DNA of 36,701 bases from Croceicoccus pelagius (GTDB lineage: Bacteria > Pseudomonadota > Alphaproteobacteria > Sphingomonadales > Sphingomonadaceae): positions 1 to 36,701 of the forward strand of contig NZ_LYWY01000031.1 in the NCBI RefSeq assembly GCF_001661915.1. The letters are read 5' to 3'. The notes under the pieces were generated by a model, which ran no database searches, had not been told where the DNA came from, and saw only the letters and a list, made by a program, of their open reading frames with translations. Made by a program: the position numbers and the translations under genes. Numbering within the stretch: position 1 is the first letter of the stretch; each line of letters opens with the position of its first letter. Shown here piece by piece: positions 50 to 36,701 of the stretch.

Positions 50-817
50 TCAGGGGTTGGGGCGTGCTTTTCGTGCCTGGCTCTGGGCCAGACGATAGCT
101 CTCGCCATTCATTTCCAGGATGCTGACGTGGTGGGTAAGCCGGTCGAGAAGCGCGCCGGTCAGGCGCTCGGAACCGAACGTTTCGGTCCATTCGTCGAAC
201 GGCAGGTTGCTGGTGATCAGCGTCGAGCCACGCTCGTAACGCTGCGAGATCAGTTCGAACAGCAGTTCCGCGCCGGTCTTTGACAGGGGAACGAACCCCA
301 GCTCGTCGATGATGAGGAGCTTGTATCCGGCCATCTGCTTTTGCAGGCGCAGCAGGCGGCGTTCGTCGCGTGCTTCCATCATTTCGCTGACCAGCGCGGA
401 CGCGGTGGTAAAACCGACTGTCAGACCCTTCTGGCAGGCCGCGAGGCCCAGGCCGATCGCGACATGGGTCTTGCCGGTTCCTGACGGGCCAAGGGCGATG
501 ACGTTCTCGCGCCGGATGATCCATTCGCAGCGCGCCAGTTCGAGCACCTGCATCTTGTTGAGCTTCGGGATGGCGGTAAAATCGAAGCTGTCGAGGCTCT
601 TGGCCGCCGGGAACCGCGCGGCCTTGATCCGGCGCTCGACCATCCGCCGTTCCCGGTCGATCAGTTCCAGTTCGACAAGCCGGGCAAGATAGCGGACATG
701 ATCCACGCCCTCTGCCGCGCATTGCCGGGCCAGCTTGTCATGCTCACGCAGGAACGTCGGCAGCTTGAGCGTCTTGAGGTGATTGGTGAGCAGCAGTTCG
801 GGAGCCGGGCTGCTCAT
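50..817 (-). CDS. istB: IS21 transposition helper ATPase IstB
   Basis: This 255-residue protein is the AAA+ ATPase that helps the IstA transposase choose and capture target DNA. A Walker A motif (GPSGTGKT, residues about 110-117) and a Walker B-like stretch (LLIIDELGF) are present. The N-terminal part of about 75 residues resembles the IstB region that precedes the ATPase core. Length is normal for the family (about 250). The start codon overlaps the istA stop by four bases, the translational coupling usual in IS21. No frameshift or internal stop is seen, so the copy looks intact. Confidence 0.95.
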   Translation of the reverse strand: MSSPAPELLLTNHLKTLKLPTFLREHDKLARQCAAEGVDHVRYLARLVELELIDRERRMVERRIKAARFPAAKSLDSFDFTAIPKLNKMQVLELARCEWIIRRENVIALGPSGTGKTHVAIGLGLAACQKGLTVGFTTASALVSEMMEARDERRLLRLQKQMAGYKLLIIDELGFVPLSKTGAELLFELISQRYERGSTLITSNLPFDEWTETFGSERLTGALLDRLTHHVSILEMNGESYRLAQSQARKARPNP

Positions 818-2322
818 GCCGCGTCCTTCGTCTCGCCCGACAACAGCCGCATGTACGAGCGCGCCGATGTCGTCTCCACCCTCGTCCTGGGCAGGTAGGG
901 ATAGATCGCCATATCCAGTCTGGGCACCCGGCGTTCAACCCGGCACAATACAAGGTGCTTCACCGCATCGAAGCCGATCGCGCCCATATCAAGGGCCTGC
1001 TTCACCGCGGCATGCAGATCGGCAAGCGTGAAGCTTTCCAGCAGGCGCAGCACCTGCACATACTCGCGCCGGCCATGCTTGCCCCCATGACGGTTCAGGC
1101 GCGCTTCCATCAGCCGGCGCAGCGTCACAAACGCCTCGGGCAGGTTCCAGCCTTGCAAGGGCGCGGCCTGATCGAGGGCATTGATCTTCTGTTCGATCAG
1201 GGGAAGGTAATGGACCGGATCGAAGGTCACGTCTTCGCGGCTATAGCTGCGGGGATGACGGGCAATGACCTCGCCCCGGCAGCCGATCACCACCTCGCCG
1301 ACATAGCCCCTGATCCATACTTCCTGGTGGCCGAAGCGTACCGGTACCGAGTAATCATTGGTCCGGTAGCGCACCAGCGCCTGCGACGAGACCTGGCCGC
1401 TGGTCTGGTCACAGGCCTCGAACGGCGATGCCGGAAGGTCCTGCATCGCCGCCAGATCGCGTTGCAGTCTCTCGCCGATCGTCTCGTTCTCGCCGCGCAG
1501 CCGATCGTTCTGCCGTTTGCGGCATTGCTCCTCGAGCCACAGGTTGAACGCCTCCCATGTCGCGAACCGGGGGATCGGGACCATGAAGTTGCGGCGGGCA
1601 TAGCCGACCAGACCTTCCACGCTGCCCTTGTCGTTCCCCTTGCCAGGGCGGCCGTAACGATCGCGGATCAGGTAGTGCGACAGAAAGGCGCTGAACAGCC
1701 TCGCGCGCCGCCGCGTGCTGTCAGGAAGGATCTTAGAGACCAGGCAGCGATCGTTGTCGTAGACGATCGAGAGCGGTACCGCGCCGAAGAACGCGAAGGC
1801 ATGAACGTGGCCGTCCATCCACGCCTCGGCAACGGCCGCCGGATAGGCCCGCACGTAGCAGGCATCGCTGTGCGGCAGATCGAGCACGAAGAAGTGCGCC
1901 TTCTGCTCCACACCGCCGATCTCAACCAGAGCCTCGCCGAAATCAGCCTGTGCGTGGCCGGGGGCGTGCGCCAACGGCACGAACATCTCCCGGCTGCGCT
2001 GAACCCGCTCCCGGATGTAATCCTTGATGATCGTGTAACCGCCGGTGAAGCCATGCTCTGCGCGAAGGCGGTCGAACACACGCTTCGCCGTATGGCGCTG
2101 CTTGCGCGGAACCGACCGGTCCCCTTCCAGCCAGCCATCGATGATCGGTATGAACGCTTCCAGCTTCGGTCGCCGCACCGGGGCGCTGCGACGGTAACCG
2201 GGCGGCACCGAATACGACAGCATCTTGCGAACCGTGTCGCGCGATATGTTGAAATGCTTCGCTGCCTCGCGCTGGCTCATCCCTTCAGAACACGCCAGAC
2301 GAACCCTCAGGTAAAGTTCCAC
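814..2322 (-). CDS. istA: IS21-family transposase IstA
   Basis: A 502-residue DDE transposase. The first 45 residues form a helix-turn-helix (SQREAAKHFNISRDTVRKML). A retroviral-integrase-like core follows, with acidic residues in HAQADFGEA, in IVYDNDR and in KGSVEGLVGYARRNF. The C-terminal part resembles the Mu-transposase-like beta barrel of IS21 transposases. Length matches the family (about 500). It overlaps istB by four bases. The protein is uninterrupted, so with IstB it could be active if both element ends exist; only one end lies in this window. Confidence 0.95.
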   Translation of the reverse strand: MELYLRVRLACSEGMSQREAAKHFNISRDTVRKMLSYSVPPGYRRSAPVRRPKLEAFIPIIDGWLEGDRSVPRKQRHTAKRVFDRLRAEHGFTGGYTIIKDYIRERVQRSREMFVPLAHAPGHAQADFGEALVEIGGVEQKAHFFVLDLPHSDACYVRAYPAAVAEAWMDGHVHAFAFFGAVPLSIVYDNDRCLVSKILPDSTRRRARLFSAFLSHYLIRDRYGRPGKGNDKGSVEGLVGYARRNFMVPIPRFATWEAFNLWLEEQCRKRQNDRLRGENETIGERLQRDLAAMQDLPASPFEACDQTSGQVSSQALVRYRTNDYSVPVRFGHQEVWIRGYVGEVVIGCRGEVIARHPRSYSREDVTFDPVHYLPLIEQKINALDQAAPLQGWNLPEAFVTLRRLMEARLNRHGGKHGRREYVQVLRLLESFTLADLHAAVKQALDMGAIGFDAVKHLVLCRVERRVPRLDMAIYPYLPRTRVETTSARSYMRLLSGETKDAA

Positions 2323-33014: not shown

Positions 33015-34005
33015 TTTTGTGCGCGAGGCCATAAGATGGAACAGGAAGGACCATCGACATGGCGATCGACAAGGACAAGTTGGACCAGCTGCTGGCTGGT
33101 CGTGAACCGCAGGAGCTGTTTGCCAAGGACGGACTGCTCGACGAGTTGAAGAAGGCGCTGTCGGAGCGGATGCTATCGGCCGAGCTGGACGACCATCTGG
33201 AGAGCGAAGGCGCCGAAGGGGGGCAAACCGACGCAAAGGATCGTCGAGAAAGACTATGCTGACGGGAACCTCGAAGGTGACGCTGGACGTTCCGCGCGAT
33301 CGAGCCGGGACGTTCGATCCCAAGCCGATCGCCAAATACCAGCGGCGTTTTCCCGACTTCGACGACAAGATCGTCTCGATGTACGCGCGCGGGATGACGA
33401 TGCGCGAGATCCGCGGGCATCTCGAGGAACTGTACGGGATCGACGTGTCGCCCGACCTGATCTCGACGATTACCGATGCGGTGCTGGAGGCGGTCACCGA
33501 ATGGCAGGGGCGGCCGCTCGATACCTGCTATCCGCTGATCTTCTTCGACGCGATCCGCGTCAAAATCCGCGATGAAGGCTTCGTCCGCAACAAGGCGGTG
33601 CACATCGCGCTCGGTATCCTGCCCGACGGTAGCAAAGAAATCCTCGGGATCTGGATCGAGCAGACCGAGGGTGCGAAGTTCTGGCTGCGCGTCATGAACG
33701 TGCTCAAGAATCGTGGCGTCGCCGATATCCTGATCGCGGTCGTCGATGGCCTTAAGGGCTTCCCGGAAGCGATCAACGCCGCGTTCCCGGAAACGATCGT
33801 TCAAACCTGTATCGTCCACCTGCTGCGCAACTCCATGAGCTTTGCGTCGTGGAAGGACCGCAAGCCGATCGCGCAGGAGCTCAGGGGCGTTTATCGCGCC
33901 GAGACGGCCGAGGCCGGCCTCTCAGCGCTCGATGCGTTCGAGGCTGGCCATTGGGGCAAGCGCCATCCCGCGATCGCCCTGAGCTAACGACGCCACTGGG
34001 ACCAT
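33001..34005 (+). mobile_element. IS256-family element, truncated on the right
   Basis: The left end is taken at 33001 (GGGACTGTCAGTAATTTTG), a form usual for IS256-family ends, directly following integrase sequence. The transposase similarity ends at 34005, where an IS3 terminal repeat begins. The right part of the element is not in the window. Confidence 0.7.
33059..34005 (+). pseudogene. IS256-family (Mutator type) transposase, frameshifted and truncated
   Basis: The start at 33059 encodes MAIDKDKLDQLLAGREPQELFAKDGLLDELKKALSERML..., the usual N-terminus. At a run of six G near 33219 one base is missing and the frame shifts. From about 33230 the normal protein continues in the other frame (TSKVTLDVPRDRAGTFDPK...YARGMTMREIRGHLEELYGIDVSPDLIS, DAIRVKIRDEGFVRNKAVHIALGI, VVDGLKGFPEAI, CIVHLLRNS). 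A further stop (TAA at 33985) replaces a tryptophan in AIALS-stop-RRHWD, and the coding sequence ends at the IS3 insertion. About 100 C-terminal residues, with the last catalytic acid, are missing. The copy is inactive. Confidence 0.88.
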
Positions 34006-34065
34006 TGAGGTGTCCCGCCTTCCTGGACAGGTTGGCGGTTGAGTTAAGCTAATCCCGGTAGTCGT

Positions 34066-34956
34066 TCATGCCGCCTGTTTGATCATCAGATCTTGGGGGG
34101 CATGCCCCCCATGATCTGATTGCCCGATCCGCCGATAGGCCTCGACCGGGGTTCTTCCGGCCAGGGCCGAGTGCGGACGCTGGGTGTTATAATAGGTGAT
34201 CCACCGGCCAAGGCCAGCCCGCAGCTCCGATCCGGCCTCGAAGGCATGGAGATAGACGCACTCGTACTTCAGGGATCGCCAGAGACGTTCGATGAAGACG
34301 TTGCCCGTCCACCGCCCCCGGCCGTCCATGCTGATGCGGACCTCGGCCTCGCGCAGCACGCTGGCAAAGGCTAACGAAGTAAACTGGCTACCCTGATCCG
34401 TGTTGAAGATTTCCGGCTTGCCGAAGCGAGCCAGCGCCTCCTCAAGCGCCGCGACGCAGAAGCCGGCATCCATCGTGTTCGACAGCCGCCAGGCCAGAAC
34501 CTTGCGGGTCGTCCAGTCCATGATCGCCACCAGGTACAGGAAGCCACGCCGCCTCGGGGTGTATGTCACATCGGCACACCAGACATGGTTGGGCCGTTCG
34601 ATCGCCAGTTTGCGCAGCAGATAGGGATAGACCCGGTGCTGCGGATGCGGATCGCTCGTGCGCGGCCGCTGGTAGATCGGCGTCAGGCCCATCTTCGCCA
34701 TCAACCGCCGTGCCCGACGGCGACCGACCTCGTGACCCGTGCGGCGCAGGTGCCGCGCCATCTGGCGGCTGCCATACCACGGGCATTCCATGAAGGTCTC
34801 GTCGATCACCGTCATCAGCGCCAGCGTCTCAGCCGTCTCCGGAACCGGCGCGTAGTAATAGGACGAACGGCTGATCCGCAGCAGACGGCACTGCGCGGCG
34901 ATCGACAGGCGGTGGTGAGCAGGTTCGACCATCGCCCGCCTCCGGTCCACGCTCAT
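34066..34956 (-). CDS. IS3-family transposase OrfB (DDE)
   Basis: 296 residues from the ATG at 34956 (MSVDRRRAMVEPAHHRLSIAAQCRLLRISRSSYYY). An HTH_21-like region (VIDETFMECPWYGSRQMARHLRRTGHEVGRRRARRLMAKMGL) precedes the integrase core, with the DDE residues in WCADVTYTPRRRGFLYLVAIMD, NTDQGSQFTS and ERLWRSLKYE. The frame is open for another 51 codons upstream, but only because of indels in orfA. The expected orfA stop would overlap this ATG, the usual junction in this group. OrfB itself looks complete. Confidence 0.92.
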   Translation of the reverse strand: MSVDRRRAMVEPAHHRLSIAAQCRLLRISRSSYYYAPVPETAETLALMTVIDETFMECPWYGSRQMARHLRRTGHEVGRRRARRLMAKMGLTPIYQRPRTSDPHPQHRVYPYLLRKLAIERPNHVWCADVTYTPRRRGFLYLVAIMDWTTRKVLAWRLSNTMDAGFCVAALEEALARFGKPEIFNTDQGSQFTSLAFASVLREAEVRISMDGRGRWTGNVFIERLWRSLKYECVYLHAFEAGSELRAGLGRWITYYNTQRPHSALAGRTPVEAYRRIGQSDHGGHAPQDLMIKQAA

Positions 34957-35237
34957 CGACCGAAGGCTTTCGCTACAAAATCCCGCTCCACCACAGTTGC
35001 CCAATCTTGGCGTGCAGCTTTTCCACCTCGCTCTCGCTGATGGCCCTGGCCGCATCACCAGCCCCGGAAAAAGGTGCCTGCCATCCCTTCGATGGCCTGA
35101 CGCTTCCACGATGCGATCATTGTGTGATGCACGCCATGCTTGGGTGCCAGCTCCGCCAGCGTCAGGTCACCCCGGATCGCTTCAAGCGCCACCCTGGCCT
35201 TGAAATCCGCGCTGTAGCGCTTTCTCGTCGTCTTCAT
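34953..35237 (-). pseudogene. IS3-family OrfA with two one-base indels
   Basis: It starts at 35237 with MKTTRKRYSADFKARVALEAIRGDLTLAELAPKHGVHHTMIASWKRQAIEGMAGTF, the usual HTH of IS3 OrfA. A T5 tract (35069-35073 region) carries one T more than expected, leading to an early stop after 60 residues. Downstream, one G appears missing (CAACTG-TGGTGG where CAACTG-GTGGTG is expected), which restores the original frame before the overlap with orfB. Read through both indels, the protein would be about 94 residues ending just at the orfB start. Either orfA is broken or the T tract is a slippery site; the double change favours decay. Confidence 0.7.
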
Positions 35238-35313
35238 TCCCGTACCAATCCATCAGGTCGGGATCAGCTTAGCATCCTGTCCAGATTTCCGGCACCATAT
35301 GTGGACGGCTCCC

Positions 35314-35576
35314 TCTTGCAAGGGCTGTGCGGAGAATTTGATCGGATCGCTTGCGTCCATATGTCCGGCCTGTGGGTGCGACCGCACATGGTCGCTGGCC
35401 AAGATGGTTTCCGCAGCATGAGTTCCAAACACCTCAGCGGCCTCGAACGGCCATTGGTGCCGATGGAATGCCACACGCCTTGGATCGATCGATCGCACCA
35501 TCTGCTCAATTCCTGCAAGATTTGGCATCAGCTCAGTACGATAGCAAACGGCTGCTCATCGTGCCTAGCCAATCTC
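35314..35576 (-). ncRNA. Predicted seekRNA/bridge-RNA region of the IS1111-type element
   Basis: In IS110/IS1111 elements the long noncoding end encodes an RNA that guides the transposase to its target. Transcribed leftwards, this region contains CGGCACCAA (35462-35454), then a small hairpin GGCC-GUUCGA-GGCC, then UGAGGUGUU (35436-35428). The first is identical to the left flank of the insertion (CGGCACCA, 35290-35297). The second is complementary to the right flank (AACACCTCA, 36693-36701). Two guides for opposite strands are what the mechanism requires. A further hairpin, GCGACC...GGTCGC, lies nearer the 3' end. The RNA borders are not determined. Confidence 0.6.
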
Positions 35577-36632
35577 TCACGCTGCCACTGCCGGCGGCGA
35601 TAGTTCTGCTCTTCGATATTGCTCACCGCTCACCATCAGTTTCCAGGCGATTCTCGCGATCTTGTTGGCGAGCGCCACCGCAACGAGTTTGGGCTTCTTG
35701 CGTTCGAGCAATCCCAAGAGCCAGACAGAGGCATTCTTGCCTCCAGTACGGCGGACGTGCTGAACAACGGCGGTGGCTCCTACCACGAGTGTACTGCGCA
35801 AGAGCTCATCACCGGCTCGTGTAATGACCCCGAGCCTGACTTTGCCGGCAGTCGAATGATCGCGGGGTGTCAAACCGATCCAGGCCGCAAAGTCTCGCCC
35901 GGATTTAAACTGTTGCGGGTCTGGGGTTTTCATCATTAGCAATGAGGCGCCGATTGGGCCGACGCCGGGAATTTTTGCGAGCCGTTGGCTACATTCGTCA
36001 TTGCGGTGCCATTCCATGACCTGGGCTTCGACCCGCTCGATTTCCATCAGGAGCTGCGAATATTCCCTGCCATGAAGCGCAAATAATTCCCGTGCCAGTT
36101 CCGGGATCGCCTCGTCCGCCGCGATGCGTTCGAGCAGGGGCTCGATCCGGCACATGCCCGTTGCTGCGGTAACTCCGAACTCTGCCGCAAAGCCACGGAT
36201 GGTGTTGGCGAGCTGCGTGCGTTTCTGAATGAGCCTGGTACGCATCGCTATGAGCATGAGGGCGGCCTGCTGCTCTACGCTCTTAGCCGGCACAAACCGC
36301 ATTGTGGGGCGGCTCATCGCCTCGCATAGCGCTTCTGCATCGGCCGCATCATTCTTGCCGCGCTTGACGTAAGGTTTTGCTAGTTGCGGTGCGATCAACC
36401 TCACTTCGTGACCATACGAACCGAGAAGACGCGCCCAGTGGTGCGCGCTGCCGCAGGCCTCGATGGCGACGACAGTCGGTGGCAACTTCTCGAAAAACCG
36501 GACCATCTCCCGGCGCGTCAGCTTCTTGCGCAAGACCGGCTGTTCTGCCGAATTGACACCGTGCAGTTGAAAAACGTTCTTTGACGTATCCATCCCTATG
36601 CGAATAATCTGTTCCACGGGCGGCTCCTTCAT
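35577..36632 (-). CDS. IS110-family transposase (IS1111 group)
   Basis: 351 residues. The N-terminal RuvC-like DEDD domain shows Asp15 (GMDTSK), Glu58 (AIEACGSAHHWAR) and the pair Asp95/Asp98 (KRGKNDAADAEAL). The middle is a long helical region. The C-terminal Transposase_20 part has the HhH-like AKIPGVGPIGASLLMMKT, FAAWIGLTPRDHSTAGKVRLGVITRAGDELLRSTL, including the serine region thought to be catalytic in this family. The protein is intact and of normal length. It is flanked by subterminal repeats and followed by the guide-RNA region. Confidence 0.93.
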   Translation of the reverse strand: MKEPPVEQIIRIGMDTSKNVFQLHGVNSAEQPVLRKKLTRREMVRFFEKLPPTVVAIEACGSAHHWARLLGSYGHEVRLIAPQLAKPYVKRGKNDAADAEALCEAMSRPTMRFVPAKSVEQQAALMLIAMRTRLIQKRTQLANTIRGFAAEFGVTAATGMCRIEPLLERIAADEAIPELARELFALHGREYSQLLMEIERVEAQVMEWHRNDECSQRLAKIPGVGPIGASLLMMKTPDPQQFKSGRDFAAWIGLTPRDHSTAGKVRLGVITRAGDELLRSTLVVGATAVVQHVRRTGGKNASVWLLGLLERKKPKLVAVALANKIARIAWKLMVSGEQYRRAELSPPAVAA

Positions 36633-36701
36633 GTGAGTCCTACAACGAAATCACCTTGGCACATTGCGATGCCGCTGGGAGCCGTCCAACCCAACACCTC
36701 A

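What the first reader, a model, noticed from the sequence alone, without database searches (positions are those of the whole stretch)
35290..36701. An IS1111-type element whose noncoding RNA region spells out its own insertion site, the tip of an IS3 element
The 263-nt region after the transposase holds two 9-nt segments on either side of a small hairpin. One (RNA CGGCACCAA) equals the left flank of the insertion, the other (RNA UGAGGUGUU) is the complement of the right flank. Joined without the element, the flanks give CGGCACCAACACCTCA, the outer end of the IS3 terminal repeat; its tip matches the IS3 left end TGAGGTGT. Established knowledge: IS110/IS1111 transposases use a seekRNA or bridge RNA with two target guides pairing to opposite strands. 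Inference: this element is programmed to insert into the ends of this IS3 group. This would make it a hyperparasite of another transposon and a ready natural guide-target pair.
Basis: partly seen in the sequence, partly recalled or inferred. Interest (0 to 1): 0.82.

Follow-up and report, generated by a model that had tools for sequence, protein, structure and literature searches.

The report
Jumping gene guided into another's end
A small bacterial jumping gene carries an RNA region that spells out its landing site, the tip of a different jumping gene, and relatives carry other spellings that match their own landing sites, many of them in other jumping genes; the mechanism is known, the target and the breadth of the habit look new.

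Summary
The element is real: an IS1111-family insertion sequence (window 35298-36696, minus strand) inside the orfA-side tip of an IS3-family element. Its noncoding region holds two guides, CGGCACCA (35462-35455) and TGAGGTG (35436-35430), around a hairpin. At least four copies here, and a 99.7% copy in a Novosphingobium plasmid, sit at such a tip. In 43 elements whose guide positions were found from conserved context alone, guides match their own targets at 414 of 473 positions, against 3.3 of 11 on average for other targets (0 of 2000 permutations as good). Guide function is inferred, not assayed. Many relatives lie in transposase genes: of 40 insertion-site pieces scanned, 23 had a Pfam match, 18 of them transposase or recombinase; the excess over neighbouring genes is modest and its control rough. 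IS1111 elements in transposon ends are known (IS4321/IS5075), so this is a new member of a known kind; the clade-wide aim at other transposases is the newer part.

The parts
35298..36696 (-). IS1111-family element (by family convention from the 7-bp left extension TGTTGGG to the 3-bp right extension ATA)
   Evidence: Ends set by uninterrupted IS3 ends in the same genome and by conserved ends of relatives with different targets
35577..36632 (-). DEDD transposase, 351 aa; D15, E58, D95, D98
   Evidence: each of the four residues is shared by 94 to 99 of 99 aligned sequences
36677..36689 (-). left subterminal inverted repeat (12 of 13 bases pair with the right one)
   Evidence: sequence; relatives
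35301..35313 (-). right subterminal inverted repeat
   Evidence: sequence; relatives
35314..35576 (-). noncoding region, predicted source of the seekRNA
   Evidence: lies between transposase stop and right repeat; position as described for the IS1111 family (PMC11187229, section read)
35455..35462 (-). guide 1, CGGCACCA (complement of core TG plus right half of target)
35437..35454 (-). hairpin between the guides (GGCC ... GGCC)
   Evidence: consensus fold of 33 elements
35430..35436 (-). guide 2, TGAGGTG (same letters as left half of target plus core TG)
36695..36701 (-). outer 7 bp of the IS3 tip (TGAGGTG, the last two being the core); the contig ends here
34006..35297 (-). rest of the host IS3-family element, orfA side next to the insertion
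34006..34030 (+). other end of the host IS3 (TGAGGTGTCCCGCCTTCCTGGACAG)

Best explanation
This is an IS1111-family insertion sequence. Its transposase, with a guide RNA made from the region after the gene, recognises a 13-bp target through two guides that read opposite strands and share a TG core, and inserts the element at that core. Here the guides spell the orfA-side terminal repeat of an IS3-family group (TGAGG-TG-GTGCCG), so the element lands 5 to 7 bp inside the IS3 tip, in one orientation in all junctions seen. Shown: the anatomy, intact and occupied sites, and covariation of guides with targets among relatives. Inferred: that the RNA is made and used as in ISEc11 and ISKpn4, and that the split tip disables that IS3 copy.
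For: Six contigs of this genome hold the element at 100% identity; four show left junctions with four different outer flanks, two show right junctions, and all six read TGAGGTG at the left and GGTGCCG at the right. Because each contig contains the whole element, at least 4 copies are proved, not 6. Four uninterrupted IS3 ends read TGAGGTGGTGCCGG; the exact 13-mer occurs 5 times, 4 of them these IS3 ends. In Novosphingobium MBES04 the same element (99.7%) is in the same tip of a 79%-identical IS3 whose outer ends are both followed by CTC. Guides outrank every dissimilar target in 51 of 63 element copies, six of the 63 being the copies of this genome; with positions set by context alone, 414 of 473 positions match in 43 elements, 0 of 2000 permutations as good. 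Guide order and the place of the noncoding region are as published for IS1111.
Against: No RNA data. The folding energy is no better than shuffled sequence (z 0.21) and Rfam gives no match. Only two of the six contigs show sequence beyond the first 8-9 bases on the IS3 side, and in one of these (C8) only 36 bp of an IS3 end. 12 of 63 copies fail the rank test; for L078 probably because my script took the wrong one of two right ends. Ends could be set in only 64 of the 125 loci given to the script. One exact 13-mer (contig C30, no IS3 match there) is unoccupied.
Confidence: 0.9

Rival explanations
1. One insertion into one IS3 copy, then spread of the IS3 with its passenger as a unit by the IS3 transposase; the repeated association would then say little about targeting.
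For: All copies in this genome are identical, and the outermost TGAGGTG stays outside the element.
Against: The right junctions differ: a full IS3 (C24), a 36-bp IS3 end (C8), and in Novosphingobium an IS3 only 79% identical. A split terminal repeat should not work for IS3 (inference). Guide covariation in relatives does not depend on copy counts.
Confidence: 0.12
2. The match of guides to flanks is chance or a trace of the element's own ends; the site is chosen by protein-DNA recognition.
Against: Without those bases and without the core, 11 of 11 target-specific positions still match here, and 414 of 473 do across 43 elements.
Confidence: 0.02
3. The guides aim at a short sequence that happens to lie in IS3 tips; IS3 is one host among several.
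For: In genome G189 a close relative whose guide spells the opposite IS3 end lies in two sites where the window's IS3 was not matched; that genome gave only one weak 70-base match to this IS3.
Against: In this genome 4 of 5 exact sites are IS3 ends; the window element, the Novosphingobium copy and L058 all lie in IS3-group ends.
Confidence: 0.15

Closest known systems
IS4321 / IS5075 (IS1111 family, target Tn21-family terminal inverted repeats; Partridge and Hall 2003, seen only as a reference and named in sections read)
   Same: IS1111 elements that insert in the terminal repeat of another transposon
   Different: Here the victim is an IS3-family insertion sequence, with other guides and another site
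ISEc11, ISKpn4, ISPst6, ISPa11 with seekRNA (PMC11187229; sections read)
   Same: Noncoding region downstream of the gene, two guides in the same order that overlap in the target, natural reprogramming
   Different: Other targets (a short linear site, attC, REP); here the target is another insertion sequence
IS621 bridge RNA (IS110 group; PMC11208160, passages read)
   Same: Target recognition by guides around a short core
   Different: IS110 group: noncoding region upstream of the gene and only short subterminal repeats
ISShsp1 (name on the relative in Sphingobium xenophagum)
   Same: 77.7% DNA identity over 99% of the element
   Different: Its guides are those of L061, which lies in an IS66 transposase gene, not those of the IS3 tip

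Membership tests
IS1111 family | DEDD transposase of about 330-350 aa | tested here: met
   351 aa; PF01548 and PF02371, NF033542; D15/E58/D95/D98
IS1111 family | Subterminal inverted repeats, usually 11-13 bp | tested here: met
   12 of 13 bp here; many relatives show the same repeats
IS1111 family | Extensions of 7 bp (left) and 3 bp (right) outside the repeats | tested here: met
   TGTTGGG and ATA, if the repeats are taken as 13 bp and the core TG is counted with the left end; ends fixed by intact IS3 ends
IS1111 family | Long noncoding region downstream of the transposase gene | tested here: met
   35314-35576
IS1111 family | Guide RNA that co-purifies with the transposase and is needed for movement | not testable with these tools
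   Only sequence, consensus fold and covariation
IS1111 family | In the RNA the complement of the top strand precedes the bottom-strand match | tested here: met
   CGGCACCA precedes TGAGGTG; rule
IS1111 elements that target transposon ends | Repeated insertion at one position in the terminal repeat of a transposon group | tested here: met
   At least 4 copies here and 1 in Novosphingobium; full IS3 sequence seen beside two of these

The most novel reading that the evidence does not exclude
A whole alphaproteobacterial IS1111 clade lives as RNA-guided hyperparasites of other transposons: its guides have been rewritten again and again, in different lineages, to spell either the ends of an IS3 group or conserved motifs of IS6, IS66, IS256, ISL3 and other transposases, sequence that the victim cannot easily change, which gives the parasite many harmless harbours and perhaps curbs rival elements.
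Probability: 0.5. Interest if true: 0.75.

Novelty: new member of a known kind. Interest (0 to 1): 0.55.

Why it matters
It gives 43 natural guide/target pairs with a nearly fixed geometry (guides mostly 17-18 nt apart, TG core), a ready set for working out the targeting code of IS1111 transposases. It also suggests that RNA-guided insertion is used in nature largely against other mobile elements, which bears on why these elements are reprogrammable at all.

Tried and rejected
Folding energy as evidence: z 0.21, dropped. Rfam on 33900-36701: no match up to E 1. Direct repeats of the IS3 copies in this genome: contigs break at the repeats, so the two sides cannot be paired; left open. More elements with the same guide pair: only this genome among 396 genomes of the order and 14 of the genus (samples drawn by the tool; G189, which carries a matching guide region, was not among those listed).

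Enrichment of transposase genes at insertion sites. 40 of 58 insertions outside this genome were scanned; I left out 18, most because the open stretch at the junction was short, but L066, L074, L083, L089, L104, L107 and L109 had stretches of 41-109 aa and were left out for a low coding score. Result: 18 transposase or recombinase, 5 other families, 17 without a match. Control: pieces 1.3 kb away in the same loci, about 12 of 64, Fisher p 0.007. I had dropped 4 control pieces that lay in the gene of the insertion; three of those are in transposase or recombinase genes, and with them back it is about 15 of 68, p 0.017. The control count is read from tallies that list families, not members, and 12 families of one group and 1 of another were not shown; at 20 of 68 the difference would be gone (p 0.14). 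Related loci are not independent. So the enrichment is suggestive, not firm.

No report of an IS1111 element aimed at IS3 ends, or of a clade aimed at transposase motifs, came up; several of these listings were capped (20 of 28 shown, 20 of 62, 25 of 63), and the library holds no preprints and few subscription papers. Not in print elsewhere is therefore not claimed.

Full report
What is there. The window is one whole contig (G000:C24) of an unnamed draft genome of 3.3 Mb in 40 contigs. At its end lies a 351-aa IS110/IS1111-type transposase on the minus strand (36632-35577), bounded by subterminal inverted repeats and followed by a long noncoding region. The element sits in the end of an IS3-family element (34006-35297 plus the outer bases at 36695-36701).

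The empty site. The genome holds a second IS3 variant, 91% identical, whose orfA-side end is uninterrupted in four contigs: TGAGGTGGTGCCGGTTTCCTGGACAG (C3, C33, C35, C36). The occupied site reads TGAGGTG[TTGGG...ACATA]TGGTGCCGG. The left part TGTTGGGGT and the right part ACATATG are conserved in relatives with unrelated flanks, so these bases belong to the element, and one TG is shared. The target is thus TGAGG-TG-GTGCCG.

The guides. In the noncoding region, read on the minus strand, CGGCACCA (35462-35455) is the complement of TGGTGCCG, and TGAGGTG (35436-35430) equals the left half; they flank an 18-nt hairpin and overlap in the core.

Fidelity. Six contigs carry the element at 100%. Four give left junctions with different outer DNA, two give right junctions; all have the same tip letters. 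Since each contig contains the whole element, at least four copies are proved. The exact uninterrupted 13-mer is found five times in the assembly: four IS3 ends and one place in contig C30 without an IS3 match. The opposite IS3 end (TGAGGTGGTCCCG, one guide mismatch) is found five times, unoccupied; with these numbers a preference for one end is suggestive only. In a Novosphingobium plasmid a 99.7% copy lies in the same tip of an IS3 79% identical to the window's; the IS3 with its passenger is flanked by CTC on both sides.

Covariation. Relatives came from 397 genomes of the family (87 with a match, loci of the best 30), from species genomes (80 kept of 569 confirmed stretches) and from plasmids (43 records; 10 fetched). 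A script could set both ends in 64 of 125 loci, six of them of this genome. For 63 with enough flank, the own target outranks all dissimilar targets in 51; 12 fail. In a stricter test on 54 non-redundant targets, 43 had a guide frame found from conserved context without looking at the target; of 11 target-specific positions each, 414 of 473 match the own target, 3.3 of 11 on average match another target, and 0 of 2000 permutations reach the observed total. These elements are related to one another, so the permutation is not a strict probability. The distance between guides is 17 or 18 nt in 41 of 49 copies with at least 13 of 15 matches. A consensus fold of 33 of these regions puts the guides in a loop either side of the hairpin, with two-sided changes in 8 of 26 pairs.

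Who the targets are. For 40 of 58 insertions outside this genome a coding piece next to the junction was scanned. 23 had a Pfam match: IS66 (L061, L070, L078, L079, L141, L146), IS6/IS240 (L081, L140, L144, L145), IS256 (L030, L072), the transposase domain DUF772 (L069, L122), IS4/5 (L073), ISL3 (L084), IS3 (L137) and a serine recombinase (L064), 18 in all; and five others (nucleotidyltransferase L032-L034, ROS/MUCR L059, PEP carboxykinase L138). 17 had none; a few of these look like palindromic intergenic repeats. Read by eye, guides spell conserved transposase motifs: D-K-W-H-L-D-E of IS6, L-P-W-N-W at the IS66 C-terminus, Q-T-C-I-V-H-L of IS256, D-R-W-H-L-L of ISL3; that some of these are catalytic is recalled, not tested. 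Genes 1.3 kb away are transposase or recombinase in about 12 of 64 pieces, or about 15 of 68 if four pieces that I had dropped are put back; the excess at insertion sites is therefore modest and the control rough. On a FastTree tree of 99 transposases, the five elements with IS3-end guides group together (window, L137, L057, L028, L058; 85-100% protein identity to the window), while IS66 guides and IS256 guides each occur in two separate places, which suggests repeated retargeting to the same victims; no support test was made.

Near relatives in the IS3-end group show fine retuning: L028, L057 and L058 carry CGGGACCA, which spells the opposite IS3 end. L058 lies in that end of an IS3-group element, with one guide mismatch. 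The two copies of genome G189 lie at one exact and one two-mismatch site without IS3 sequence, and that genome gives only a 70-base, 74% match to the window's IS3. This speaks against strict dependence on IS3: where the victim is missing, the same guides can serve elsewhere.

Known and new. RNA-guided targeting by IS1111 elements, natural reprogramming and IS1111 elements in transposon ends are published (PMC11187229 sections 4, 6, 9, 10, 13, 14 read; PMC11208160 passages; IS4321/IS5075 from these papers). I found no report of an IS3-end target or of a clade aimed at transposase motifs in the searches named under Tried and rejected, whose listings were partly capped. I file this as a new member of the IS1111 family, with the clade-wide habit as the open novelty.

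Noticed in passing
window 33256-34006: The IS3 lies directly beside the broken end of an IS256-family transposase gene (PF00872, profile 70-308 of 379), so the window may show a three-level nest: IS1111 in IS3 in IS256.
   Followed up: partly
window 50-2322: The other end of the contig holds an IS21-type transposase (rve plus Mu-transpos_C_2 at 814-2322) with a second ORF beside it, so insertion sequences lie at both ends of the contig.
   Followed up: no
window 35577-36632, residues 260-263: The C-terminal motif reads S-T-A-G; at the third position 51 of 99 aligned sequences have G and 47 have A. The seekRNA paper mentions TA as an occasional form.
   Followed up: partly
L057 1-102: In Novosphingobium PC22D a relative with IS3-end guides has lost its left end and an IS3-type end lies there instead: the victim next to the remains of its parasite.
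   Followed up: no
L138 2501-3907: A relative with the same guides as L061 (IS66) sits in a PEP carboxykinase gene with partly matching letters: probably a natural off-target insertion.
   Followed up: partly
L149 (G000:C8) 1402-1440: One copy's right flank holds only 36 bp of an IS3 end followed by other sequence, perhaps an IS3 relic that still served as target.
   Followed up: partly
L083, L088, L105: A few relatives have targets that look like palindromic intergenic repeats (by eye).
   Followed up: no
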